DNA of 64,000 nt from Papaver somniferum. Lineage: Eukaryota; Streptophyta; Magnoliopsida; Ranunculales; Papaveraceae. The translations under genes and the position numbers were made by a program. Of the stretch, positions 6,030 through 25,838 are shown one piece after another. The notes beneath the pieces are model-generated. The model was not told the origin of the DNA, did no database searches, and was given only the letters and a program-made list of their open reading frames with translations. Numbering within the stretch: the stretch's first letter is position 1; each line of letters opens with the position of its first letter. The stretch spans positions 17,843,116 through 17,907,115 of the forward strand of contig NW_020621603.1 of NCBI RefSeq assembly GCF_003573695.1, written 5' to 3'.

Positions 6030-6232
6030 CAGTTAGTGAAAGGCTTGTTCCTGCCCACTGCCGCTTCTCCTGCCACAACTGTTCTTCATGCCCAACAAAG
6101 AAAAATGAGTTGTTGGTCAAAGGACCCAAGGAACTGGCAGAAATGAGTACATGCCAAGTTTTTATATGAAGAACACTTTATTGGCAGTGAAAAGAAAAAG
6201 AAGAATACATCACCGGATTAAAGGTAATTATT
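6030..6232 (+). pseudogene. SPX-domain gene relic, copy A (end of last exon)
   Basis: This is the degenerate counterpart of the last-exon tail seen better at 17290-17475. It keeps the CCTGCCACAACTGTT phrase, the GGACCCAAGGAACTGGCAGA segment (corresponding to a GPKEQAE peptide in copy B) and the ATGAAGAACAC segment. Frameshifts and stops break the frame. Upstream exons are not recognisable, so only the 3' end of this copy survives. SPX proteins are phosphate-status sensors that bind PHR transcription factors; this fragment cannot encode one. Confidence 0.65.
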
Positions 6233-6690
6233 TAATACTAATCCTCCTCCTAATTGATTTGGTTAGGTACATTGTAAATTTTAGGATTATGCAATGAAAT
6301 TTTGTTGCAGACATACAAATTTTTGTCTCGTTATAGTTTTTTCCTTTCCAAATTTTTACAATCATGGTCTGGATTAGGATTTATCCTTAGCTAACATATA
6401 CCTGTAGGTGCGTTGTGTTACTTATTACAGTTATTGAGTTATCCACCTCAGGAGAATAATATCTCCTCTTAATTATCCGTTTGATTTTTGATGTAATCTC
6501 TAGGAATATCCACATTCCACATGATTAGTACCACTCATCTTTGCTATCCTGCCATCTATTTAGACTAGAGAGTTCATTTCTGTAACAGGATCATTGGCTT
6601 ACGAGCAATGTTGTCACACGAATTTGATCTGCTATGTGCATTTATTTTCATAATATGGGGCATGTTAATAAGGTTATAAGCTGATTGAGT
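6233..6690 (+). repeat. Inter-copy spacer of the SPX array (matches about 17470-17880)
   Basis: Long stretches match the region after copy B, including ...AGCTAACATATAC.TGTAGGTG... and ...CCACCTCAGGA.AATAA.ATCTCCTCTTAAT.... The same order (last-exon tail, spacer, next exon 2) occurs twice, so the SPX pieces arose by tandem duplication of a unit that included the spacer and not by retroposition. Confidence 0.75.
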
Positions 6691-6806
6691 CGTATGTTTT
6701 TAGTTACAGGAGTTGCAGGACAGGGTTGCAAGCAAGAAAAGAAATTGTTGATTTTCATGAAGAAAATGGTGTTGCTTGAGAATTATAGTGTCTTAACTAC
6801 ACTGGT
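6691..6806 (+). pseudogene. SPX-domain gene relic, copy B, exon 2 (5' side of retrotransposon)
   Basis: After a GTTACAGGAGTTGCAG acceptor-like sequence comes an exon relic. In one frame it encodes a peptide ending MVLLENYSVLT, matching the SPX core motif usually written IVDFHGEMVLLENYSAL. About 25 bases are missing near its start compared with copy C, which breaks the frame. The exon ends CACTG/GT, and the Ty3 element is inserted exactly over this donor: its 5-bp target duplication CTGGT spans the exon-intron boundary. The intron resumes at 15911. Confidence 0.75.
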
Positions 6807-7264
6807 TGTAGGATCAGAATCTCGCAACAACAATATTTCAGCGAAATTATTAACAACACAATACAATAGCGTCGCAGAATAATTTCAGGAAGAATATAAT
6901 AAATGACGTCACCTAAGATCACAAGAAAGATGTGATAGTCCTGCGAAAATTAAAGAGCTTGCGAAATTAATATTTGTAAGGTTGCGAGAATATCGCAAAT
7001 CATACCCGAAAATAAAGGATAGATTAGCTGTCACCCATTATGTATTTTCCTATAAATAGTCGTTCAAGTTGTAAAGAGAAGGAAGACATCTTTTTTGAGT
7101 AAGAAACAAGTAAATATGAGAGAGAAAGTCTAGGGTAGAGATCATTCTTGATTTCTTTATCTTTTCTTGTAAGAACCTTCAAAGATTGATCTGTAAACCT
7201 AAAAATGAGTTGATTAATAATGAAATCATATGAGGCGTGTAGTGTAGGATTTCCTGCAACTACA
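6807..7264 (+). repeat. 5' LTR of the Ty3/gypsy element
   Basis: A TG...CA bounded repeat, with a matching copy at 15434-15905. It contains a TATAAATA promoter box at 7051-7058 after TTTTCC. It is rich in GCGAA/TTCGC words, such as TGCGAAAATT and TCGCAAATC. Confidence 0.93.
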
Positions 7265-7373: not shown

Positions 7374-8059
7374 ATGAATACAATTAATGAAGATGACAAA
7401 AGATTGCAGTGTAATATGATAACAAAAACGATGGTTAATGAATTCCATGAAAACATCAAAGGAAGAATACATAAACGAAATTTTGAAGGAAGGAAAGTTA
7501 TGGCGGTAGAAAAGACATCACCCTTGAAAGATTTGGAAAAGCAAAAATTACATTCATGGCAGCAGAAATACCAAAAGAAAATTTGAACCACACATCTCCG
7601 TTGGTTATCACAGTGCCTATTACGCGAAAAGAGAAGGAGACAACAACAAAATCCACAGGAGAATGGATATTGAACAGAACTTTAATCGATACAGGAAGTT
7701 CAGTGGATATAATATTTTATCACACATTCCGGGGAATGGGATTTAAAGATGAAGAAATGTCCAGTTCAACATATTTTGTTCTCGGCTTTGGAAAATCCAC
7801 AACAAAACCTAAAGAAGAGATAGTGGTACGAATTCCACTTGGAGAAATCGAAACACATGTAACGTTGTGCGTGGTGGATATGGAATCGCCATATAATATG
7901 TTATTAGGAAGACCATGGATACATGCGATAAAATTTGTGGTATCAACGTTGCATCAATGTATTAAATTCCCCACACCAAATGGAATAGGTGAAATCAGAG
8001 GAGATGTTGACAATGCGAAATTATGTCATCAAATTGAAGTAAAGCATTATGGGGGATAA
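7374..8059 (+). pseudogene. Gag tail and aspartic protease of the Tat element
   Basis: Only about 300 bases separate the primer site from protease, far too little for a normal Tat gag, so most of gag is deleted. A gag-tail frame (7374-7586) shifts at about 7550 into the protease frame starting at 7556. The protease has the catalytic LIDTGSS motif at residues 43-49 of that frame and the conserved LLGRPWIH segment about 80 residues later. This is a retropepsin-like fold that would cleave the polyprotein. The protease ORF stops at 8059, after which the reading frame to RT is broken. Confidence 0.85.
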
Positions 8060-8304
8060 TGCAAAAAGAAACAATTTCGCAGAAAGTTGGCAAAGGAGCA
8101 AAGAAAGAAGAAGAAAAGAAGAATTTAGAGTATATATGATAAGGGCAAAAGAAGGCAAAGGAATACCCAGCGAAATTTCGGAAGAAGGAGAAGGACCTAT
8201 GAAAACAATAAAAGAACCAACACCAATGGGAGAACCTAAACCCAGTTACACTGCCGCAGAACCAACAAAAGAAATAAACGTTGGGACTATAGGAACCTCT
8301 AATA

Positions 8305-9309
8305 TTGAGAATTGGAACCAAAATGGATATGGAAGAAGAAGAAAGAACTGTTAACTTGTTGCGAGAATATAAAGATGTTTTCGCAGGAAGCATGGATGAG
8401 ATACCGGGAATAGATCCATCAATTGCATGCCACAAGTTGGAGATTAACAAAAATGTGAGACCATTTAAACAGAGAATAAGAAAAATTGCAACAACTTACC
8501 ATTCCCAAATAGAAGAAGAACTACAGAAAATGCTTGAGCGGGAATCATAAGAGAAGCTAAATACCCAGAATGGATAGCGAATATGGTCATTGTCCCAAAG
8601 AAAAACAAAGGAATCAGGATTTGCATAGATTTCACTGATTTAAACAAAGCTTGCCCCAAAGATAGTTTTCCGTTACCAGATATTCCTCAAATGGTGGAAT
8701 CCGCAGCGGGAAATGATAGGGTATCATCTTTAGATGGGTACAAAGGGTATAACCAAATCCCTCTCGCTGAAGAAGATCAAGAACATACTGCTTTCTTTCC
8801 CCTAGAGGTTTATATTGTTACACGAAAATGCCATTTGGTTTGCGAAATGCGGGAGCGACATACCAAAGAATGGTAGAGAAGGTGTTCGCAAAATGGATAC
8901 ACAAAACATTAGAAGTATACGTGGATGACATGTTAGTAAAGAGTAAAGAAGCTAAAGACCATGTACAAGACCTGAGGGAGATTTTTGAACAAATGCGGCA
9001 GTATAACATTAAATTGAATCCTGAGAAGTGTACTATTGGAGTTGCATCGGGAAAATTTTAGGCTACATTGTATCAAAGGAAGGAATACAGGTTGATCCAG
9101 AAAAAGTGCAAGCAGTTCGTGACATGCCAACACCAGCAACAATAAAAGATGTACAGAAGTTGAATGGGCTTCTAGCTTCGCTGGGGAGATTCATTTCGCG
9201 ATCATCAGACAAATGCAAATATTTTTTCGATATACTCAAGAAGGGTGCGAAATTTAAATGGACTGATGAATGTGAAAAAGCTTTTCAAGGATCAAAGAAC
9301 ATCTTATGA
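8305..9309 (+). pseudogene. Reverse transcriptase of the Tat element, frameshifted
   Basis: Typical plant Ty3/gypsy RT segments occur in order: EYKDVFA and GIDPSI near 8360-8420, then ICIDFTDLNKACPKDSFPLP (about 8620-8680), YKGYNQIPL (about 8740), MPFGLRNAGATYQRM (8828-8872) and the catalytic YVDDM at about 8918-8932. The thumb/connection region GYIVSKEGIQVDPEKV follows. They lie in four frames, with breaks at about 8545, 8800 and 9055 and a stop at 9307-9309, so no active enzyme can be made from this copy. Confidence 0.9.
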
Positions 9310-10200
9310 ATACAACTATTTTACAAAAAGCAGAATCAGGAGAAGAATTATTGATCTATCTTGCGACGACGTCGCATGCATTAAGTTGTGTTATTGCGAG
9401 TAGACGCAGGAGTGGAGAAACCCATTTATTACATTAGCAAAACTTTTAATACTGCCGAGAAGAATTACTCAAAGATTGAAAGTTAATCTTAGCATTAGTT
9501 TATGCATCATTTAAGCTCCGCATATACTTTCAAGCACACAAGATAAAGGTATTAACAAAAGTACCAATTGAATCAGTGATGAAGAATTCTAAAAGATCAG
9601 GAAGAGTGGAGAGATGGAATGCACAAGTAGGCCACTTTGATATTAAATATGAAATTTTGTCTTCACCAAAATCACAAGTTGTTGCAGATTTCTTGGCAGA
9701 ATTTCCTTTAGAAGAAGATGAAGCAGTAGAAGAAATGATGGATGTAGAAGAAGAACATGGAGATCCAAAAGATTTATTAACAGAACCAAATAGATGGGAG
9801 ATATTGGTAGATGGATCATCAAAGAGGAAGGAAATGGAGTTGGAATTGTTTTAATTTCGCCAGAAGGAATAAAATGGCTTTTTCATTCAGATTGGAATTT
9901 GCATCCACTAATAATGAAACAGAATATGAAGCTGTGATACATGCCTTAAAATTCGCAATAGAAATGAAACTAGAAAATGCCAGGATCACTAGTGATTCGC
10001 AGCTAGTTATTCGCCAAATAAAGGGAGAGTATACTACAAATGAACCATCCTTGAAGAAATACAAGAAGCTGGTTGAAGAATTGTCAGCGAAAATCCCAAA
10101 AATAAAATGGAGGCACATTTCAAGAAAGGATAACAGACTCGCAGACGCTTTTGCTTTCATCTCAAGCATGATGACAGATCCAACTGCGAGATGCATAAAA
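9310..10200 (+). pseudogene. RNase H and second RNase H-like region of the Tat element
   Basis: After the RT stop, relics of the retroviral RNase H are seen (SALSCVIASR, then an ISKTFN-like segment near 9440 and a LxLVYASFKLR-like segment). A linker with VVADFLAEFP (about 9680) follows, then a second RNase H beginning WEILVDGSS (about 9798) with the NNETEYEAVIHALKFA core (9910-9960) and SDSQLVIRQIKGEY (about 9993). The second domain marks the Tat group, in which the original RNase H degenerates into a connection domain. A frameshift at about 9845 interrupts it. Confidence 0.82.
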
Positions 10201-11552
10201 ATACAAACACTTCTGTCACCATCAATCAATAAAGAAGAAGAAGACGTGGACGTGATGATAATAGACAATGAAGAAGAAGAACAAATGAACAATATCGCAG
10301 ACTGGAGAATGGAACTTCATGCATATTTGGCGAAAGGAGAAACACCAAGAAATAGATTGGAAACACACAAGTTAAAAAGCCGTGCAACGAATTATGAATT
10401 AAGAGATGGGTTGCTATACCGAAAATCCTTTAATGGACCATCACTCAGATGTTTGACACGAGAGGAAGGAGAAAAGGTGCTAAAAATGTTACATAGTGGG
10501 GATGCTGGCAATCATAGTGGAGGAAGATCTTTGGCACATAGAGCAAAAATGCAAGGTTATTACTGGCCATACATGCATGAAGATGCAAAACAAATATCAA
10601 GACGTTGCGAAGATTGTCAGCGGCATGGAAAGAAAATACATGCACCTGGAGCACCATTGTCATCTTCAACCAGTGTGTGGCCTTTTGGAAAGTGGGGCTT
10701 AGATATTGGGGCCATTTTTACCAGGATCTGGACAAAGAAGATACTTAATAGTCGCAACAGATTATTTCACAAAATGGACAGAAGTGAAGGCAGTAGTACA
10801 CATATTCGCGACAAAGATATCTTTACATTCATATTCGAAAATATCATTTGCAGATTCGGAATTCCTGCACAGTTGGTATCTGATAATGGGAAACAATTTG
10901 AAGGACAGAATATAGAAATGCTACTTAATGCATTCAAGATAAAATGTGGAAAGTCTACTCCTTTGTATCCACAAGCTAATGGGAAGTAGAAGCAACAAAC
11001 AAAACAATTGCAGATATATTAAAAAGAAATTGGAAGGACATCACAGAGCATGGTGCGAACAAGTACATAATGCAGTATGGGCTTATAATACAACTAGAAG
11101 AGAAGCTACTGGAATGTCACCTTTTTGTTTAACATACGGAGTTGAAGCGGTGTTACCAACAGAAGTTGTTATTCCGACAACAAAAAGAGAAGCTTGGGAG
11201 AAAAATCTTAGTGCGGGCTTGATTTTAAATAAACTTGATGAATTAGAAGAAAGAAGAGAAAAAGCTTTACAACATATGGAGAATTATCAGCGAAGATTAG
11301 CCCGAGAATATAATAAACGTGTCAAAATACGCGAATTTCAACCAGGAGATTTAGTTCTGCGAGAGAAACACCAATATATCAGCGAGAAAATGGTGGAAAA
11401 TTAGCGAAAAAATGGGATGGACCTTACATCATTAAGGAGATAGTTGGAACAGAGCTTATAGATTAATGGATCCAAGGAAGAGATGTTGGTCATAGATTAG
11501 ACAGACCATGGAACAGGTTGTACTTAAAAGATATTATCCGTAAGAAGCTTTG
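10200..11552 (+). pseudogene. Integrase of the Tat element, frameshifted
   Basis: The HHCC zinc-binding region is present, with histidines in MLHSGDAGNHSG and cysteines in CEDCQRH (about 10480-10625). The DDE core is split between frames: VATDYFTKWTE (about 10750) in one, LVSDNGKQFEG (about 10875) in another, and the VEATNK glutamate just after a stop created at 10987-10989. The C-terminal region keeps EFQPGDLVLR (about 11335) and GPYIIKEI (about 11420), and ends with a stop at about 11552. It would insert the cDNA, but frameshifts and stops disable this copy. Confidence 0.87.
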
Positions 11553-12218: not shown

Positions 12219-12535
12219 TAAGACGCAAATGTCATGAGGCTTTTTATTCGCAAGGTATTAAGGCTTGTCATATTTGTGCAACAATCCTGAAGAGGCAATA
12301 ATACAAAAGAAAAGATAAGACGAGATCAATGGGTTTTCGCATGAAAGTGCGAAGACGTCCTGCGATTTCGTCGCAAGACGGCAATGTCATGGGGCTTTAT
12401 TTTCGCAAGAATATTTAGGCCTGTCATATTGTCGCAACATTCCTGAAGAGGCCATAATACAAAAGAAAAAGTTAAGGCAAGATCAATGGGTTTTTGCATG
12501 AAAGTGCAAGGACGTCCTGCGATTTTGTCGCAATG
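12219..12535 (+). repeat. Two-copy tandem repeat of about 155 bp
   Basis: Copy 1 starts AAGACGCAAATGTCATGAGGC at about 12219 and copy 2 starts CAAGACGGCAATGTCATGGGGC at about 12373. Both continue through CAATAATACAAAAGAAAA-like and GATCAATGGGTTTT sequences to GGACGTCCTGCGATTT. It lies in the non-coding part between pol and the antisense gene. Confidence 0.85.
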
Positions 12536-12810: not shown

Positions 12811-15032
12811 TTAATTCAGTAGCAGGAGATAACAGAAATTCTTCGCCAAATTCTCGCAAGCCTCTCCTTCATTTCGGTTTTGATCTTCGCCTTGACTAGC
12901 ATCTTGATTATCGCCAGCAATTACTTCTTCAGGAGAAATTTCTTTCTCATTTGATTAACACCAGCAGATGCTTCTTTAGAAGGAATTCTTCTTCATCTTC
13001 CAAGAAATTATCCTCTGCACCGCTTTCGTAATCATAATCACTATCAGCAGGACGAGGAACTTCATCATCATCTACTTCTAAAGGATCAATTGATGTAGGA
13101 GGAAGAGATTTGGACAATAAAATGTCATTTACAAGGACTTCAGCCCGGAGATGAACTTGCGAAGAAGTGCTCTCTGATTCCTATCTTGAATATCCTTAAA
13201 ATAAGCAAGATAATCAAGTCTTCTTTCTGCTCGGTCGCGAGAACCAGTAAGGGCAGAGAGAGCAATGCATTTTCTTTGCGAATTTTGGCATTTTCCTCCA
13301 AAACAGAAATGGAAGAATGAAGATTCTTCTCAGACTCTGCGAAAGATAGAATACAAAATTTCATTAAGAAAGAATTCAGAAAGATATGACAAAGAAAAGA
13401 TAATTAAGGCAGTCAAACTATTATGACTACCTTCCTTTTGCGAAATAAGGTGTTGAATCAAGGACAACAACTATTCTCCCAACGGTCCATTGCGTCATCA
13501 AATTTATCTCCAACTAAACCTTTAAGTCGAGACTGAAGATTTTTCTCTTTAGAAATAAGAAAGGCATTTTTCTTCGCAAGAGAAGAATAAGATTCTTCTA
13601 ATTTGGAATATTGTTCTTTAAGCTGATTCGCCTTTACACTTAAAGCTATTCTACCTTGAATGAGTGTATCTCTTTCAGCGATAGATGACTCTGTTACTTC
13701 TTTAAGTTCATTTCTCAAAGAGCGAAGAGATTGCTCTTGGTCATCACATACTTTTTGAAGAATACTAAGTTGTTGCGAAGATATCGCCATCTTGTTTAAA
13801 TAAGTTCTCTTCTCTTGGGATAAGGTTTTATTCTCATCTGATAAAGTTTACATCCATAAATTAGCTTTAGTTAAAAAATAAGAAAGACGAGATACTTCAT
13901 TACTTAATAAATCTTGTCTTTGAACTAATTGGGTATTTTCATTGGTAAGATTATTTATATGATCAAGAGAATATGAATAGAGGTTATCTAATTGGTTATA
14001 TTGATCCATCAAGATTTCTTTATCAACACAGGCTTCTTCAACAACAGATTCAAATTGATATCTCTCCATTATTCGTTTCTGGTTTAAAGCTTAACATGCG
14101 AAAGAGGGATTTCAAGGATAATTAAATATGGGAAGGATAAAACCATTAAAAAGGAAAATTAAAGACACAGATAAGAAAATCATACCTCTCAATTCATCAT
14201 TCTTCTTGCGAAGATTGTCACGATCCAACAAAACATTATGAAGCTTCTGATTTTCGAGACGAAGAGTATTACATTCTTTTTGCAAAGCTGTCTGCGAAGC
14301 TGCGAAGCAGCTCTGTCAGAACCCAAATGCTTGCTCAGAATTTCGCAAACATTAGATTTGATAGGATCAATGGAAGACTTCTTGACATCATCCAGAACTT
14401 CAGATAAAACTTTGAAGGCAATATCTATCCCTTCCACGGTTTCTTTCGAAAGAGGAAGAGACTTAGGTAGAGAACTGGTAGAGATAGAAGGTTGAGAAAC
14501 ATTCTCAATAGGAAGAGAAGAGGTTTCATTCACAGCAGGATCAACAAGGGGAGTTTCAATCATTGAAAGGTCAGCTGAAGAAATGAAGTCTGAGGCAGCT
14601 TTTTCGCGAATTGGAGATAAAGGTTTATCTTGCGAAGATGTCGCAGGAGATTTAGAAGAGATGAGTAAGTGGAAGGGAACAGAAGTTGGAACAATTTTAA
14701 GGTGGCGAGATTTCTTGAGAGGTTTATTAACATCTTTATCACCCTGCGAATTACAATCCAGATAAGAAACAGAGGCAACAATATTGTTATTAGAAAAGGA
14801 TAGTGTTTCTTACTACCTTCTCATTCGCAAACTTTCTTTTAGGCGCAACAACCTTATGCTGCGATTTGGGAATGTTAGGGTTCTGAACTGTAAATCTAGT
14901 GTTGGAGGCGCTTTTGCTGAAATAACAAGAGTATGAGAATCACATAAACAACATCAAATAAGGCAATAAACAAGATCAATTTCAGTAAAACTCATAAAGA
15001 AGAAAAAAGAAAACTAACCTTGATGAATCCAT
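12811..15032 (-). pseudogene. Antisense multi-exon coiled-coil gene of the Tat element (aORF)
   Basis: Read on the minus strand, a 14-base first exon starts ATGGATTCATCAAG at 15032. A donor GTTAGT lies at 15018 and an acceptor TTTCAG ends at 14917. The joined frame runs MDSSS then KSASNTRFTVQ. After a frameshift near 14805 the frame continues with serine-rich and lysine-rich sequence to a heptad-rich segment at about 14190-14290, an intron (about 14075-14186), a long coiled coil (13458-14069 with one stop at 13848), another intron, and an acidic tail ending near 12947 or, after another shift, 12811. It resembles no gag or pol part. Antisense extra ORFs are known in Tat elements; function is unknown. 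A transcription-related or packaging role is only a guess. Confidence 0.72.
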
Positions 15033-15221: not shown

Positions 15222-15235
15222 GGAATATATATAGA
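15222..15235 (-). promoter_or_regulatory. TATA box of the antisense gene
   Basis: Minus strand reads CCCTCTATATATATTCC, a good TATA box about 190 bases upstream of the antisense ATG at 15032. This spacing is normal for a plant promoter with a leader of roughly 160 bases. It suggests the antisense gene has its own promoter inside the element, independent of the LTR. Confidence 0.55.
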
Positions 15236-15433: not shown

Positions 15434-15905
15434 TGTAGAATCAGAATATCGCAACGACAATATTTCAGCGAAATTATCAACAACACAATACAATAGCGTC
15501 GCAGAATAATTTCAGGAAGAATATAATAAATGACGTCACCTAAGATCACAAGAAAGATGTGATAGTCCTGCGAAAATTAAAGAGCTTGCGAAATTAATAT
15601 TTGTAAGGTTGCGAGAATGTCGCAAATCATACCCGAAAATAAAGGATAGATTAGCTGTCGCCCATTATGTATTTCCCTATAAATAGTCGTTCAAGTTGTA
15701 AAGAGAAGAGAGAGATCTTTTTTGAGTAAGAAACAAGTAAATAAGAGAGAGGGAGTCCAGAGCAGAAATCATTCTTGATTTCTTTATCTTTTCTTCTAAG
15801 AACCTTCAAAGATTGATCAATAAAATTAAGAGTGTAAATCTAAAAATGAGTTGATTAATAATGAAGTCATATGAGGGGTGTAGTGTAGGATTTCCTGTAA
15901 CTATA
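15434..15905 (+). repeat. 3' LTR of the Ty3/gypsy element
   Basis: Matches the 5' LTR almost throughout, with scattered substitutions and a small insertion near 15810-15830 (ATAAAATTAAGAGTG). The TATAAATA box is at 15678-15685. Divergence between the LTRs is small by eye, so the insertion is fairly young compared with the SPX decay around it. Confidence 0.93.
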
Positions 15906-17475
15906 CTGGTAATTATCTCTCTCTAAATTACTATACTTTGCGAATAAAAACTAAAACTAGTAATACAGTAAAATCCCATGGAATCCACAAATTTCGACAT
16001 TTATGTAAGAATGACAAGGATCAGTGCTCCACGCATTCGCCATCTAGATCAGGCCACCGAAAAGGATCAGTGCTCCACACATTCGCCACCGAAAATAGTT
16101 CGCTGGTGTGTATAAAACTACTGAATTTAGCAATTTGGATGATATTTTATTTAGTATAGATGTAATAGAACAACTTCAATAGTGTTAGACATTTTAAGAA
16201 AGTAAATGTTTTAATCACACGACAAACGTCAATTTGACTGGCCTTTTCTTTACTAGGCCTTAGATGTGGATAAAGGAAAGTAAAGCGTTTTCTATTTTTT
16301 TTCCGTTTTTTCTTTGACATATGATCACTCATTTGTGTGGACGAATTGGATGTGATTTGGGTTGCCCCATACTATTTTAGATGCATGTTTTTTTGATTCA
16401 GCAGATTTCTTTTTGAATGATTTAACCTGTAGAGGAGTCTCTATTGATGCTTTTGGATTTCTTTTTAAATGGAATCCAACATTATAATATCTGCAGGGAC
16501 TTTTTCTTTACTGGAAAAAAGAATAATTCGCTAACTAGATCCAAATGGAGTCCGAGTCTGGAATCAGATTAAATGTCAACTATGAGTAAACCCAACTCTC
16601 ATCGTCAATTTTTTTTATATGACTCTTTTTGGTAGTGCATGAAAAGCCTTGCCCACAACCATTAGACTTGGCTAGTTGGCTATCTCCGGTACCTTGCTCT
16701 CTAACTACTAAAATGTGTTGAAGACAAACATCGAGTAGGGTATATGTCTGCTGTTGGATCGTGTCCCTGTTACACATGCATAACTGACCCTCTCTCAAGT
16801 ATTACTTCCGAACTTATATATACACCTTGGGGTAGCAGAGAAACCCCAATGTTTGTATGCTTGATGATCCCAACCTGATTATTTTGAAACTCTGCAGCAT
16901 GTATATTGAGCCTGGTTCAGTCATAAATTATAGGCCCGAAACATTTTTTACCTGGATTCCTGAACAATTTTATTGATATCTCTGACTTGTTTAATGAAAC
17001 AATTAACACTTGTTGTATTAAAGCAACAGATTTCCAATACTCTAATCAGGCTTCATAACCGGTAGCTGCCTGTTCATTTAAAATGCTTTCTATGCATCGT
17101 TCAAGTCGAGCATTTATGCTAACATTTTATGGAGCCCTTTTGTATGCAGGTTTCGTGAACATACTGAAAAAATATGATAAGCAAACAGGGGCATCATTCG
17201 TTTTCCCTTCATCCAGAGGGTTTTGGAGCTGCAATTCTATTCCTGATCACCTCTTTCCAATCAACAATAAGCCATCAATTCCAACATCTGAAAGCGCTGA
17301 TACCCCCCCTACTCCTGCCACAACTGTTGTTCCCACCCCCACAGAGAGAGATGGGTCATTGCTCAGAGGACCAAAGGAACAGGCAGAGATCGAGTTCATG
17401 CAAAGTTTGCATATGAAGAGCATTATATCGGCATTGAGAAGAAGAAGAATACATCATCAGATTCAAGGTAATTGA
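15906..17475 (+). pseudogene. SPX-domain gene relic, copy B, intron and last exon (3' side of retrotransposon)
   Basis: The second CTGGT target copy leads into the intron. Most of 16340-17140 matches the intron of copy C (18090-18820). The last exon starts after TTTTGTATGCAG at 17148 and encodes GFVNILKKYDKQTGA, the SPX segment normally GLVKILKKYDKRTGA. A frameshift and deletion follow, removing the helix before LFPIN. The tail recovers with LLRGPKEQAEIEFMQSLHMK, close to the LLRVPKELAEIEYMESLYMK tail of SPX1/2-type proteins. No first exon exists nearby, so the copy cannot encode a full SPX protein. Confidence 0.82.
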
Positions 17476-18990
17476 TTAATACTGATCCTCCTTCTAACTG
17501 ATTTCGTTAACTACGATGTAAATCTTAGGATTACGCCATGAAATTTAGTTGCAGAGATACAAATGTTTGGCTCCATGTAGTTCGTTCCTCTCCAAATTTT
17601 CACAATCATGCGCTGGATTAGTTATCCCTAGCTAACATATACATGTAGGTGTGTAATGTTTTACTGATTACAGTTGTTGAGTTAATCCACCTCAGGAAAA
17701 TAACATCTCCTCTTAATTTATCCTTTTGATTTTTAACTAGTGGAAATCTGTACCACTGATCTTTGTGGTACGTGGTGGATGTTTTGGCTCACTGATTTGC
17801 TATCCCGCCATGTTGCAACAGTATTCGGTGGCTTACGATCAATGTTATCACAAGGATTTGATAAAGTTGTAAGCTGATTGTTTCGTATGTTTTTAATTGC
17901 AGGACAGAGTTGCAACGCAAAGGAATCTCATGATAAGTTGATTAAAGCAAGAAAAGAGATTGTTGATTTTCATGGAGAGATGGTTTTGCTTGAAAACTAT
18001 AGTGCCCTTACCTATACTAGTAACTATCCACCTATTTGGGAAAATTTTAATGCCGGTTCGAGATGAACGTAACCTCGGTTTCCAGACAATTTTAGATGCA
18101 TATTTTTTTTCTGTTCATTGGGTTTCATTTTAAATGATTTAACCTGATGCAATAACAATTGGCTAACTAGATCCAAATGGAATCTGAGTCTGAGTCTGGA
18201 TTAGATGTCAACTATGATAAAACCTAGAAGTAGAAGCCCACAACTCTCATCATCAATTTTTTTAAATGACTCTTTTGGGTGTTGGAATTTGTAGCGCATG
18301 AAAAGCCTTGCACACTACCATTAACTAGACTTGGCTAGTTGGCTATCTGCGGTACCTTGCTAGATGTGTCAAAGAACCAAGGTGGAGTAGGGTATGTGTC
18401 TGCTGTTGGATATACAGATCGTGTCCCTGGTATACACGCACAACTGACCCTCTCTCAAGTGTTACACCTTGGGGTAGCAGAGAAACCCTAAAGTTTATTA
18501 TGCTTGATGGCCCCAACCTGATTATTTTGAAACTCTGCGCTTCTGCAGCGCAGGAGCATGTCTATTGAGCTTGGTTAGAGGCCCAAATCATTTTTTACCT
18601 GGATCCTGAACAATTACGTTGAAATCTCTGACTTGTTTATACTTCTCTCGATGTCTTCAACTCCGAGCTATGTGATACTTGTTATATCAAACCAACAGAT
18701 TTCCAATACTCTAATCGGGCTCCATATTGGACAGCTGTGTTTTATTCATTTAAAATGCTTTCTATGCATCATAATCAACTCGAGCATGTTGAACTTTATG
18801 CTAACATTTTACAGTGTCCTTTTATATGCAGGCTTGGTGAAGATGCTGTCCTTCATCCAGAGGGTTCTGCAGCAGCCAGCCATCAGTTCCAACATTTGAA
18901 ATCGCTGATACCCCCTAATCCTGCCATAACTGTTGTTTCCACCCACACATAGAAAGATGGGTCATTGCTCAAGTCTCAAGAGGACCAATT
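17476..18990 (+). pseudogene. SPX-domain gene relic, copy C (spacer, exon 2, intron, last exon)
   Basis: The spacer matches 6233-6690. Exon 2 starts after TTTTTAATTGCAG at about 17902 and encodes KLIKARKEIVDFHGEMVLLE, a very good SPX core match, but a small indel just upstream shifts the frame. It ends at TATACTA/GTAACT. The intron runs to TTTATATGCAG at 18830. The last exon keeps GLVKML and SFIQRVLQQP, lacks the LKKYDKRTGA part, and loses frame before a decayed CCTGCCATAACTGTTG tail and the GATGGGTCATTGCTC segment. SPX proteins sense inositol pyrophosphates and restrain phosphate-starvation regulators; this copy is not functional. Confidence 0.8.
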
Positions 18991-21956: not shown

Positions 21957-24900
21957 TCAATCCTCCTCATCTAAAAGAAAATCAGTTGTGGCTATGTAGC
22001 CCTGTTCTCTCATCAATGCAGTCAAATCCTTCAAAACAGCACGAACTTCACCAGCATTAATATGAAGTTTATCTCCTGCTACAAATAAGTTTAGCTTAGC
22101 ATTCACTTCAATCCAGCTACATCCAGGAAACTTCTTCAATCCTCTTTCTTTCATTAAATTGCGAACTCTGTTGGATGCACCCCAGTTCTTAGATGCTGCA
22201 TATAAATTAGAAAGAAGCACATAGGATGTAGGATTATCAGGTTCCAACAAAATAAGCTTTTCAGCTGCCTTCTGCCCCCGTATTAAATCCCCGTGTATTT
22301 TACAGGCTCCTAGTAATGTAGCCCAAACCCCAGCTCCAGGTTCAAATGGCAATTTCTCAATCAACTCTTCTGCTTCTTTGAGACGTCCATGGCGCCCAAG
22401 TAGGTCAATCATGCAGGAAAAATGATCATCTCTAGGTTTGATCCCACTACATATCATAAGATTGAAATATTCGCGACCTTCTAATACCATTCCTCCATGA
22501 CTGCACGCGGTGAGGACTCCTAGGAATGTGATATCATCAGGTTTGACATTTGTATGCTTCATTTGATTGAAGATCTTCAGTGCTTTCCCTGCATAGCCAT
22601 TTTTCGCAAATCCAACAATCATCGAGTTCCAAGAAACAGCATCTTCTTTGTTTACCATTTCCTCAAAAACTTTCATTGAGCTCCCAATATCCCCACATTT
22701 AGCATACATATCTACAAGAACACTGCACGTGGATTCATCCAAGTCGAACCTGGTATGAAAAGCAAGACAATGAATGACTTTCCCATCCTGTAGGGCTGCT
22801 AAGCCAGAACAAGCACTGAGGACACTGGTAAAAGTGGATTGATCTGGTAAAACATCATCATTACGCATTTCTCTAAAAAAACAAAGAGCCTCCGAGCTAT
22901 TGCCGTTCTGAGCATGTCCTGAAATCATACAAGTCCATAAAACTCTACTTCTTTGCTTCAGGAACTCCAAAAAGAGCTTATTTGCATCTTCAGTGCTTGA
23001 AGATCGCAGGTACATACCCAAGAGTGAGACACCCGAAAACTCATCATCAACTAAAACACCAGATTTCAAAGTATCACAATGAACCTGCCTTCCCAGATTC
23101 AACCTTGATGATGCACTACATGCAGTTAAAATGCTGGCGAATGTGTACTTTGAAGGCTGCAAACCTTCTGCTTGCATGTCTAAAAACTCCTTCACTGCTT
23201 CATCTGCATTGTTGTTCTGAATGTACCCTGCAATTAGGGCATTTCTAGAGACAACAGTCTTTACAGGCATCTCAGAGATTACCTTATTTGCAGCTTCCAT
23301 TGCCCCACACTTGGCATACATGTCAACCAGAGAACTTCCAGCATAAATATTCAAGTCAAGACCTAATTTCACTGAGAAGCAATGCACTTGTTTACCTTGC
23401 TCTAATGCTTGCCGATTTGCGCTGCCACTAAGAATACTAGACACTGAAAATTGATCAGGCAAAAAGCCATCAAATATCATCTTCTTGAACATTCTAAAAC
23501 CTTCCTCCTCATCTTTTTCATGTACATACCCAACAATAATGGCATTCCAAGAAACAATATCTCTCTCTGGGATGAGTTCAAATTGCCTTCTTGCATCTTT
23601 CAAATCACCAGACTTAGCATACATATCAACCAAAGCATTTCCAACAAATAAGTTCAACTCCAAGTTCATCTTGATTATAAATGCATGAAATTGCCTACCC
23701 ATTTCTAAGCTTTCCCACTGACCAAATGCGCTAAGAACTTTGGTGTAAGTAAACTCATCAGGTTCTAGACCAGAATTTCTCATATTGGAGAAAATTTCTT
23801 TGACTTCAAGAGATTGTCCGTTCTGTGCATAACCTCCTAACATAGCATTCCACACAACAGTATTTGTAACATCCATTGCATCAAAAACTTTTCTAGCAGA
23901 TTCCATAGAGTGACACTTGGAGTACATATTTATCAATGAACTTCCAGCGTAAACATTACAATCCAACCCTAGTTTGATAGCCTCAGAATGAACCTGCTTT
24001 CCTAGATTAAGATCTGTAAGACTAGCGATGGCACTTAAAACACTTCCCAGTGTAGATCTTGTTGGTTTAACACCAACCAGATGCATATCTCGAAAGAAAC
24101 TAACAGCTTTTTTCTCAAACCCACTTTTAGAATGTCCCTTAATCATTACATTCCAAGCCACCACATTGGGATTTGGTAGTTGGGAAAACAAATCAATTGC
24201 CTGGTTCAACCTTCCTAGACCAACACAGGCGGTAATTATCGTAATAACTGCAACTTCATCTGGTTTCTCAACGACTCGTTCCATTTCTTTAAACAACTCG
24301 AGAGCTTCTCTGGGTAAGCCAACTCGAACATAACCCGCAATCATTGTTGTCCAAGATACAGTATCAGGTTTATCAACTCTATCAAATAATTTTCGAGCAT
24401 CTGGTAAGCAGTCACATTTAGCATACATGTCGATCAAAGAACCCCCGCAAAAGGAATTTAACTCAATATCTGTCTTGATCGCATCGCAGTGAAAAACCTT
24501 ACCTAAACCCACATTATTCAATTTCGTACAAGCAGAAACAACCAAAGCAAATGTGTACTGATCTGAAACAGTGTTAGAATTACGCATCAACCTAAACATC
24601 CTCACAACCTCTTCTGGAAATTCCGATCTTGAATGCATAGACATGATTGAATTCCAGGCAACAGTATCTCTTCTATCAAGCCGGTTGAAGACCTCCATTG
24701 CGAAATCAGTCTCACCACATTTACCATACAGATCAACAATTATATTTCCAAGTTTTCCTTCTAATCCATACCCAAGACTCAGGGTCTTGGCATGGATAAC
24801 TTTGCACTTTTTTGTAGCTTGAGATTTCAGATGAGGCATTTTGTCGCACACGTGAAGGGATTGAATACGTTTGCATTCTTGTACACAAGTATATAACAGG

Positions 24901-25055
24901 TTGCTATATGTATAATTTTGGTTTGGGACCAGCTGAAAATTTTGCTGTACCTCTTCAACGGCTAGTACAGCATCCGAGGTGAAACATACACGACGGAGAG
25001 AGAATACCGAGTTCAACTTGAGTAAATTTGACGTGCGCACATGAGTTGCACGCAT
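21957..25055 (-). CDS. PLS-class pentatricopeptide-repeat protein with E/E+ domain (1032 aa)
   Basis: An uninterrupted, intronless 1032-residue frame, as usual for plant PPR genes. The N-terminus (MRATHVRTSNLLKL...LRRVCF) is arginine- and serine-rich and lacks acids, like a mitochondrial targeting peptide. From about residue 70 to 900 there are roughly two dozen P, L and S type repeats with typical NALVDMYAK, DIVSWNAII and YTFASILTACS phrases. From about 902 come the E motif (VWATLLGACKIHGD, YVLLSNLYAA) and E+ motif (CSWIEV, NLFVAGD). It ends LLDEED with no DYW deaminase. Such proteins bind organellar RNA and usually specify C-to-U editing sites with a partner deaminase. Architecture and length resemble Arabidopsis At3g09040, a likely but unproven relationship. 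Confidence 0.95.
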   Translation of the reverse strand: MRATHVRTSNLLKLNSVFSLRRVCFTSDAVLAVEEVQQNFQLVPNQNYTYSNLLYTCVQECKRIQSLHVCDKMPHLKSQATKKCKVIHAKTLSLGYGLEGKLGNIIVDLYGKCGETDFAMEVFNRLDRRDTVAWNSIMSMHSRSEFPEEVVRMFRLMRNSNTVSDQYTFALVVSACTKLNNVGLGKVFHCDAIKTDIELNSFCGGSLIDMYAKCDCLPDARKLFDRVDKPDTVSWTTMIAGYVRVGLPREALELFKEMERVVEKPDEVAVITIITACVGLGRLNQAIDLFSQLPNPNVVAWNVMIKGHSKSGFEKKAVSFFRDMHLVGVKPTRSTLGSVLSAIASLTDLNLGKQVHSEAIKLGLDCNVYAGSSLINMYSKCHSMESARKVFDAMDVTNTVVWNAMLGGYAQNGQSLEVKEIFSNMRNSGLEPDEFTYTKVLSAFGQWESLEMGRQFHAFIIKMNLELNLFVGNALVDMYAKSGDLKDARRQFELIPERDIVSWNAIIVGYVHEKDEEEGFRMFKKMIFDGFLPDQFSVSSILSGSANRQALEQGKQVHCFSVKLGLDLNIYAGSSLVDMYAKCGAMEAANKVISEMPVKTVVSRNALIAGYIQNNNADEAVKEFLDMQAEGLQPSKYTFASILTACSASSRLNLGRQVHCDTLKSGVLVDDEFSGVSLLGMYLRSSSTEDANKLFLEFLKQRSRVLWTCMISGHAQNGNSSEALCFFREMRNDDVLPDQSTFTSVLSACSGLAALQDGKVIHCLAFHTRFDLDESTCSVLVDMYAKCGDIGSSMKVFEEMVNKEDAVSWNSMIVGFAKNGYAGKALKIFNQMKHTNVKPDDITFLGVLTACSHGGMVLEGREYFNLMICSGIKPRDDHFSCMIDLLGRHGRLKEAEELIEKLPFEPGAGVWATLLGACKIHGDLIRGQKAAEKLILLEPDNPTSYVLLSNLYAASKNWGASNRVRNLMKERGLKKFPGCSWIEVNAKLNLFVAGDKLHINAGEVRAVLKDLTALMREQGYIATTDFLLDEED

Positions 25056-25838
25056 TCTTTATGTTTGCGAGGTGTTTAAGCTGATTCTGATCATCCGTAT
25101 GCTTGACTTCGTTTATATTTTGGCAGAATGTCCTTTGTTCGTAGACGAAGTCCTGTCCGCTGTCAACATTAAAACAAAATGTTCCTATCAGATGTTATGA
25201 CAAATTTATGAAACACAAAAATGGTTCTATCAAATGTTATGATAAATTTATGAAACACACAGAATAAGAATTTGTATCTGCTTGAACTACTGTATGTTAT
25301 CAAATTTTTTTTTGGAATTTTACAGAATGACTTACTCACAATTCCAAGTTTTCAATGTCTCTGTTGCTTGTGTCGAAGCTCTACTTGAGCATTCCAACCT
25401 CCCTTGCCTTTCATTTAAACTACATAAAAATTATTCTCACTTAGGCATTTCTACAAACACTTAACATGTTCCAGTTTTGGTTTGGAAACCCTAAAGTTGA
25501 TGAAGAGAATAAATTCTGAGCAAACAGAATAACCCCTCGGACTAAAACAAATCGTAAACAACTATCAGTAGCTTATTAAAGTAAAAAAGCACAGTGATGA
25601 AGAAATATGAGACCTTGATTGTTTCAGCTTTTTGTTGTCAAACGGTGTTTTTCAGCTAGTTGCCAGACAGGCAAATTATTTTATCTTTGACTTCTCGGTT
25701 GACTTCTGCTTTGCTTTAAAAGTTCAGGAATATGGACCCCCAGAGATACGCACTCATGAGTTATCATGGTCCATGGCCATGCTCACAATATTTTTACATT
25801 TTAAGTTTGAGGTAGTGTAGGACACATAAAAGGAAGGG
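25056..25838. other. PPR upstream region and intergenic DNA
   Basis: The promoter of the minus-strand PPR gene should lie at the left of this stretch. I see no clear TATA box near 25080-25110. A direct repeat (TATCAGATGTTATGACAAATTTATGAAACAC, shared by about 25186-25217 and 25228-25259 with small changes) is present. No gene is recognised in the rest. Confidence 0.4.

What the first reader, a model, noticed from the sequence alone, without database searches (positions are those of the whole stretch)
12811..15032. Spliced coiled-coil gene on the antisense strand of a Tat retrotransposon, with its own TATA box
Seen: a 14-base first exon, a 102-base intron with proper donor and acceptor (14917-15018), two further intron-like gaps, long heptad-rich frames, an acidic tail, and a TATA box about 190 bases upstream on the same strand. 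Known: extra antisense ORFs have been reported between pol and the 3' LTR of Tat-group elements, with unknown roles. Inference: this copy is a decayed member of a conserved retrotransposon gene expressed independently of the LTR, possibly influencing element transcription or particle assembly.
Basis: partly seen in the sequence, partly recalled or inferred. Interest (0 to 1): 0.75.

Follow-up and report, generated by a model that had tools for sequence, protein, structure and literature searches.

The report
Spliced antisense gene in poppy retrotransposon
A mobile element in the opium poppy genome carries, on its opposite strand, a real gene with five exons and its own promoter-like site; related copies show that evolution has protected its protein, a long coiled-coil with an acidic tail.

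Summary
The window holds a gag-less Tat/Retand-type element (LTRs 6807-7264 and 15434-15905, TSD CTGGT) in a genome identified as Papaver somniferum. Between pol and the 3' LTR, on the antisense strand, lies a five-exon, four-intron gene (15032 to 12798), broken in this copy but open in some siblings (624 codons). Differences shared among 38 copies are depleted in amino-acid changes (N 56, S 61, omega about 0.31, p 3e-10); copy-private ones are nearly neutral (0.85). A second set of 21 copies agrees (0.28). A diverged relative (dS 0.8-1.0) keeps the 14-nt first exon, introns 2-4, a 660-nt exon 4 and omega 0.23-0.38. A public contig lacks intron 4 exactly at the predicted junction. Antisense accessory genes of Retand elements, one nuclear with its own promoter (Grande gene23), are known. 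In what I could search I found no multi-intron coiled-coil version in a plant element, nor one kept in a gag-less family. Reading it unspliced puts two membrane-like segments in the protein, both intron-derived, which may explain reported "transmembrane" ORFs of Papaver Retand. Function, probably nuclear regulation, is inferred.

The parts
6807..7264 (+). 5' LTR, preceded by TSD CTGGT (6802-6806)
   Evidence: 459 aligned columns with the 3' LTR, 24 mismatches, K2P 0.055
7487..11550 (+). pol remnant: protease-like, RT, RNase H, additional RNase H, integrase; no gag before it
   Evidence: Pfam (protease E 0.00066, below its cut-off; RVT_3, integrase zinc-binding and core; RT and domain order read in sibling locus L069); collinearity with two siblings without a gag insert
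12220..12533 (.). two tandem copies of a ~157-bp unit between pol and the antisense gene
15226..15233 (-). TATATATA, candidate TATA box of the antisense gene
   Evidence: kept in 34 of 37 copies; a TATATAA lies 128 nt before the ATG in diverged relative L073
15019..15032 (-). exon 1, ATG + 11 nt
   Evidence: a 14-nt exon with GTGAGT donor begins the gene in L073
14917..15018 (-). intron 1, 102 nt, GT-AG, phase 2
14817..14916 (-). exon 2; ends in the first half of a bipartite nuclear-signal-like motif (KRK...)
14744..14816 (-). intron 2, 73 nt, GT-AG, phase 0
   Evidence: donor and acceptor kept in L073 (72 nt)
14186..14743 (-). exon 3; begins with the second half of the motif (KPLKKSR); carries an 8-base private insertion in this copy
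14090..14185 (-). intron 3, 96 nt, GT-AG, phase 1; contains stops
   Evidence: 92 nt in L073
13431..14089 (-). exon 4, long-helix coding (660 nt in L017 and in L073, a multiple of three)
13337..13430 (-). intron 4 (96 nt and stop-free in sibling L017; 111 nt and 108 nt with stops in relatives L071 and L073), phase 1
   Evidence: absent from the contig that encodes P0006
12798..13336 (-). exon 5, helix then disordered acidic tail
15434..15905 (+). 3' LTR, followed by TSD CTGGT (15906-15910)

Best explanation
This is the antisense accessory gene of a gag-less Retand-type element of opium poppy. SHOWN: a five-exon gene on the strand opposite pol, between pol and the 3' LTR, whose spliced reading frame has been under purifying selection while the elements multiplied and has decayed after insertion in most copies examined, including this one. 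SUPPORTED: splicing (conserved intron positions, one contig lacking intron 4) and transcription from a TATA promoter of its own just inside the 3' LTR. INFERRED: host RNA polymerase II makes the antisense mRNA from the integrated copy, the host spliceosome removes the introns, and the protein enters the nucleus through a basic motif assembled at the exon 2/3 junction, self-associates through its long helices, and uses the acidic tail to influence transcription or chromatin of element copies. Because the introns lie on the antisense strand, the genomic sense RNA carries them as reverse complements that are not spliced; so an intron-bearing gene can pass through retrotransposition unchanged. Its upkeep in a family without gag suggests an advantage tied to the copy that encodes it, not a part of the particle.
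For: 38 copies: shared differences N 56, S 61, omega 0.31, p 3e-10; singletons N 405, S 145, omega 0.85; Fisher p 1.4e-7; 5' and 3' noncoding stretches 0.69-1.41, not significant. Replicate, 21 further copies: shared N 31, S 38, omega 0.28, p 1.7e-7; singletons 0.84. Exons 1-2, 3, 4 and 5 each show the effect (0.14-0.36). GT-AG in 140 of 152 copy-introns and in 71 of 77 in the second set. L073: exon 1 with its donor, introns 2-4, a TATA-like site and zero stops in exons 3-5 kept at dS 0.78-1.0, omega 0.37, 0.23, 0.38; shifted frames 0.66-1.27. L071: omega 0.21 and 0.38, with stops inside intron 4. P0006 joins QKE to DSEKK where intron 4 was predicted; its best genomic match starts at residue 43, two residues before that junction. 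Long helices 24-218 and 225-331, disordered tail. Nuclear-signal-like motif and acidic C-terminus.
Against: No RNA reads were mapped; P0006's contig could be an intron-lost genomic copy. With minor-allele count 6 or more omega rises to 0.46 (p 0.04, N 14, S 11). Four indels in exons are shared by three or more copies and only one is a multiple of three. One sense frame also shows omega 0.46 (p 2.7e-5), which I explain by its sharing the wobble position; the same frame has 30-33 stops in six copies. The introns are too short to test selection alone. TATA conservation is not exceptional. Exon 2 of L073 reads with an in-frame stop, and exon 4 of L071 shifts frame near its end, so both relatives are themselves decayed. 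Nuclear location and regulatory role rest on motif and analogy; pTM is 0.26.
Confidence: 0.62

Rival explanations
1. The antisense strand encodes separate membrane (ENV-like) proteins from unspliced frames, as the Papaver Retand paper suggests for two additional ORFs.
For: Unspliced frames of 229 and 435 aa are open in several copies and have hydrophobic peaks of 2.41 and 1.93. [quoted passage not shown]
Against: Both peaks lie inside introns 3 and 4; the spliced protein peaks at 0.89. In relatives intron 4 has in-frame stops, and P0006 lacks it. I could not see Figure S16, so that these are the same ORFs is inference.
Confidence: 0.1
2. Only the antisense RNA matters (dsRNA, siRNA or interference with the sense RNA), and the frame is incidental.
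For: Antisense non-coding roles are discussed for such elements in PMC7264820 (part 2).
Against: Selection is at codon level, in one frame, across four exon blocks, and continues over dS near 1.
Confidence: 0.05
3. A host coiled-coil gene captured by the element and kept for a while.
For: The introns resemble those of ordinary plant genes; captured genes are known in LTR elements (PMC7264820, part 1).
Against: Three protein searches gave seven proteins in all (in 37 and 44 only the roughly 8000 candidates sharing most words were scored). Two are named P. somniferum LOC proteins; one of them (P0003) lies in a locus with the same architecture and 77% DNA identity over 1.27 kb to the element gene, so it is probably element-derived too. 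No clear host homologue appeared. Ancient capture cannot be excluded.
Confidence: 0.2
4. A structural or particle-assembly protein that replaces part of Gag.
For: The window copy and two siblings lack gag and the protein is a long coiled coil.
Against: Basic nuclear-signal-like motif; strand and promoter separate it from the packaged transcript; gag-bearing Retand clusters also carry antisense genes (PMC11963269, Table 1).
Confidence: 0.1

Closest known systems
Antisense aORFs (aORF-3R) of Retand elements with the TRP28/Transposase_28 domain (PMC11963269)
   Same: Same place (pol to 3' LTR), antisense, long pol-3'LTR region, tandem repeats, coiled-coil (Smc) hits in some clusters, several clusters without gag
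   Different: No PF04195 hit in the scanned frames nor in the whole genome (whose control was silent too). TRP28 is in 97% of the clusters of that paper but only in 23% of Retand elements of PMC6317226, so its absence is not unusual by the second count. Four introns here; the word 'intron' does not occur in that paper's main text, nor do Papaver or Ranunculales
Grande gene23 of maize (Gomez-Orte 2013, seen only as cited in PMC7264820 and PMC11963269)
   Same: Antisense accessory gene, own promoter, nuclear product
   Different: I have not seen the original, so its intron content and sequence were not compared
PvRetro13 ORF2 (as described in PMC7264820)
   Same: Antisense ORF between pol and 3' LTR with an SMC-type (coiled-coil) match
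   Different: Different host and domain call; sequence not compared
HBZ of HTLV-1 (PMC10186651, passages read)
   Same: Antisense, spliced, nuclear coiled-coil (bZIP) protein opposite gag-pol
   Different: Starts in the 3' LTR, intron number not checked, viral; works-like comparison only, no homology claimed
Group II Retand sublineages of Papaver (PMC12582370, passages read)
   Same: gag-less, short distance from 5' LTR to protease
   Different: The word 'antisense' does not occur in that paper's main text; exact sublineage not assigned here

Membership tests
Tat clade, Ogre/Retand position | additional RNase H between RH and INT (PMC6317226) | tested here: met
   sibling L069: RT_RNaseH 3-97, RVT_3 158-272, integrase H2C2 375-430 and core 448-537 in one frame
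Retand lineage | RT phylogeny within Retand | not tested
   no reference RT set at hand; Retand is called the most abundant lineage of three Papaver genomes (PMC12582370, passage)
Retand lineage | long pol-3'LTR region with antisense ORF | tested here: met
   about 3.9 kb, antisense gene
TRP28-type aORF | Transposase_28 domain PF04195 | tested here: not met
   no hit in the exon 3 frame and the exon 4-5 frame of siblings L017 and L025 (exons 1-2 not scanned); genome search empty but its control was silent
Antisense accessory gene of Retand elements (aORF-3R) | conserved antisense coding frame across copies | tested here: met
   selection and splice sites conserved; frame still open in 6 of 38 copies, as decay after insertion predicts
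Antisense accessory gene of Retand elements (aORF-3R) | own promoter and antisense transcript | tested here: inconclusive
   TATA-like site kept in 34 of 37 copies; no RNA data
Antisense accessory gene of Retand elements (aORF-3R) | nuclear product | not testable with these tools
   motif only

The most novel reading that the evidence does not exclude
A retrotransposon lineage carries an intron-rich, promoter-bearing protein gene on its antisense strand. The strand choice lets a multi-intron gene survive reverse transcription, and in a gag-less parasite family this gene is kept under selection because its nuclear coiled-coil protein favours the copy that makes it. Skipping the 660-nt exon 4 would give a second in-frame isoform without the first long helix, a possible built-in competitor. 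The 'transmembrane ENV substitutes' of Papaver Retand would then be misread introns.
Probability: 0.35. Interest if true: 0.75.

Novelty: new variant of a known kind. Interest (0 to 1): 0.58.

Why it matters
Whether the diverse extra ORFs of plant LTR elements have any function has been left open (PMC6317226, section 13). Here codon-level selection on a spliced antisense gene answers yes for one family, and two diverged relatives agree. ORF surveys that ask for a minimum length and model no splicing (600 bp in PMC11963269, 250 codons in PMC6317226) would split this gene into unrelated-looking pieces and turn its T-rich introns into membrane segments, so similar genes may be missed or misread. 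It gives a concrete protein for testing what antisense accessory genes do, and shows how a gene with introns can live in an element that copies itself through RNA.

Tried and rejected
Chance ORF: rejected. Sense-strand coding: the only sense frame with low omega has 30-33 stops in six copies. Intronless copy at C10:124182215 (suggested by the gapless match): the locus is a same-family copy with a deletion running from intron 4 into exon 5. Pfam matches of the coiled coil (KASH_CCD, HAUS1, ZapB and others) are all below their cut-offs and were taken as composition. Fold search was not run because the model is two long helices with pTM 0.26. Variants with minor count exactly 2 were left out of the single/shared classes; all variants with count 2 or more gave omega 0.47. 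Variants lacking a natural codon partner were dropped in all three. Of 40 copies scored, 38 were aligned; two were not fetched in that set (one of them came in later as L057). Of 97 matches scored, 30 became loci; nine were the same copies as before and 21 were used. A tblastn step returned nothing and was not used. Paper searches behind the novelty statement: full text of open-licence PMC papers only; subscription papers (Gomez-Orte 2013, Steinbauerova 2011, Kejnovsky 2006) were not seen.

Full report
SETTING. The window lies on contig C2781 of a 2.715-Gb genome. It is Papaver somniferum: a protein of that species in the protein database (P0004) lies on a contig of 166,527,240 bases, the length of contig C10 here, and the contig length of P0003 equals that of C32180. 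The element has LTRs at 6807-7264 and 15434-15905, 24 mismatches in 459 columns (K2P 0.055), and CTGGT on both sides. With a recalled plant rate of 1.3e-8 per site and year this is roughly two million years. The 5' LTR is followed almost directly by protease, so gag is missing; two siblings are collinear with the window from 6806 to about 12,940, so gag loss is shared by the two siblings looked at. RT, RNase H, a second RNase H and integrase follow in the order that marks Ogre and Retand elements (in sibling L069; PMC6317226 section 13 read). The layout fits the gag-less 'Group II' Retand sublineages of Papaver (PMC12582370, passages).

GENE MODEL. Using one natural sibling as ruler, the antisense strand reads ATG + 11 nt, intron 1 (101; 102 in the window), exon 2 (100), intron 2 (73), exon 3 (550), intron 3 (96), exon 4 (660), intron 4 (96), exon 5 (551 with stop): 1875 nt, 624 codons and a stop, no internal stop, every intron GT-AG. 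Window coordinates are in the parts list. Over 38 copies (38 of the 40 scored, out of 3101 first-look candidates), 140 of 152 copy-introns keep GT-AG. The spliced frame is open end to end in 6 of 38 and fully intact (start, splice sites, stop) in 2 of 38; in the second set 2 of 21, with GT-AG in 71 of 77 copy-introns that could be read. The window copy is broken by a private 8-base insertion in exon 3 and other private length changes.

SELECTION. A difference carried by three or more copies mostly arose before insertion, while elements multiplied; one carried by a single copy mostly arose after insertion. In the gene frame, shared differences are N 56, S 61 against an expected N:S of 2.99 (omega 0.31, p 3e-10); singletons are N 405, S 145 (omega 0.85, p 0.06). 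Third positions hold 62 of 117 shared differences. Each exon block shows it (0.14, 0.36, 0.30, 0.33). The other antisense frames give 1.60 and 2.31, and the sense frames 1.22, 1.64 and 0.46. The 0.46 frame shares its wobble position with the gene and carries 30-33 stops in six copies. Noncoding stretches on both sides give 0.69-1.41, none significant; thresholds of 2, 4 and 6 copies give 0.47, 0.24 and 0.46, the last with p 0.04. Twenty-one further copies, chosen by protein similarity and so slightly biased, give shared 0.28 (p 1.7e-7) and singletons 0.84. Against this reading, four exon indels are shared by three or more copies and only one is a multiple of three.

RELATIVES AND SPLICING. Locus L073 (contig C32180, 77% DNA identity over the matched 1.27 kb) holds the locus of NCBI protein LOC113345268 (P0003; 99% match from residue 63, and its first 63 residues read in another frame upstream). 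It keeps the 14-nt first exon with GTGAGT donor, a TATATAA 128 nt before the ATG, intron 2 (72 nt, GTAGTAAG...TTCGCAG), intron 3 (92 nt), exon 4 of exactly 660 nt, intron 4 (108 nt, with one in-frame stop) and exon 5 (554 nt). Exon 3 is longer (643 nt against 550). Exons 3-5 have no stop, and omega is 0.37, 0.23 and 0.38 at dS 1.0, 0.83 and 0.78, against 0.66-1.27 in shifted frames. Its exon 2 reads with a stop, and the intron 1 acceptor was not checked. Locus L071 on C6 gives 0.21 (exon 4, 183 codons) and 0.38 (exon 5, the 89 codons before a decay stop), with a 111-nt intron 4 that has stops in the reading frame; its exon 4 shifts frame near the end. P0006, from a 935-nt contig of the 'lgn' source (which I take to be Logan, assemblies of public read sets), runs QKE-DSEKK without intron 4, as donor GAAG|GT and acceptor CGCAG|AC predict; its closest locus in this genome (89%) aligns only from residue 43, two before that junction. 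P0003 joins exon 3 to exon 5 at the predicted donor and acceptor and skips exon 4, which is present and open in the genome; since exon 4 is a multiple of three and both flanking introns are phase 1, skipping keeps the frame. P0003 is an annotation model; I do not know whether reads support it.

PROTEIN. The 435-aa frame of exons 4-5 (with intron 4 read through) models as two long helices, 24-218 and 225-331, and a disordered tail 356-435; mean pLDDT 69.5, pTM 0.26, eight sequences. The last 124 residues of the spliced product carry a net charge of -26 and the first 50 of +8. A motif of the bipartite nuclear-signal type (KRK, 11 residues, KPLKK; pattern recalled) is completed at the exon 2/3 junction. 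In the 32 copies whose exons 1-2 could be printed, KRK is kept in 30 and KPLKK in 24. In L073 the translated exons read KRK, 11 residues, KLPKK. No Pfam family reaches its cut-off; in particular there is no Transposase_28 hit. A genome-wide search with that model found nothing, but its control genomes were silent too.

UNSPLICED READING. The unspliced 229- and 435-aa frames have hydropathy peaks of 2.41 and 1.93 that lie in introns 3 and 4; the spliced protein peaks at 0.89. [quoted passage not shown] I infer, without having seen Figure S16, that these may be the two unspliced frames of this gene or its gag-bearing cousins.

HOW IT MOST LIKELY WORKS. Shown: a selected, intron-bearing antisense protein gene. 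Supported: splicing and a separate promoter. Inferred: nuclear, self-associating, acidic-tailed regulator of element transcription or chromatin. The antisense placement lets introns persist through the RNA cycle.

KNOWN AND NEW. Antisense genes in this position are a hallmark of Retand elements, and 97% of clusters with recent copies encode TRP28 (PMC11963269, parts 1-4 of 5 read), though an earlier survey counts it in 23% of Retand elements (PMC6317226). Grande's antisense gene is reported to be nuclear and to have its own promoter, and conservation of such genes across copies was argued before, citing Ohtsubo 1999 and Gomez-Orte 2013 (PMC7264820, parts 1-2 of 3 read). So the kind is known, and that review itself asks for a look at antisense and spliced transcripts. 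In the passages and texts seen, I found no antisense gene with several introns in a plant element, none in Papaver, and no codon-level selection test. HBZ of HTLV-1 (PMC10186651, passages) is a works-like parallel only.

On re-reading the calls I corrected the stop count of the low-omega sense frame (30-33; I had matched the wrong frame), gave motif counts, the 23% figure for TRP28, and the decay seen in both relatives.

Noticed in passing
window 21957-25058 (-): A 1033-aa pentatricopeptide-repeat protein with E motif, an ordinary host gene about 6 kb from the element.
   Followed up: no
window 12220-12533: Two ~157-bp tandem copies, 86% alike, between pol and the antisense gene.
   Followed up: no
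window 6193-6377 and 17437-17621; 16519-17365 and 18151-18971: Flanking DNA outside the element is itself repeated (first pair 84%; pieces of the second pair 76-90% alike), an older duplication around the insertion.
   Followed up: no
L073 (C32180:8649700-8652400): Annotated host protein LOC113345268 sits in a locus with this antisense gene's architecture; its model skips an open 660-nt exon.
   Followed up: partly
P0002 (454 aa, 3104-nt ENA contig): A 37%-identical relative of unknown host, also with a hydrophobic stretch where intron 4 would be; it may mean that the gene reaches beyond this family.
   Followed up: partly
L069 and L070: Two siblings lack gag in the same way as the window copy, so a non-autonomous family seems to have multiplied.
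   Followed up: partly
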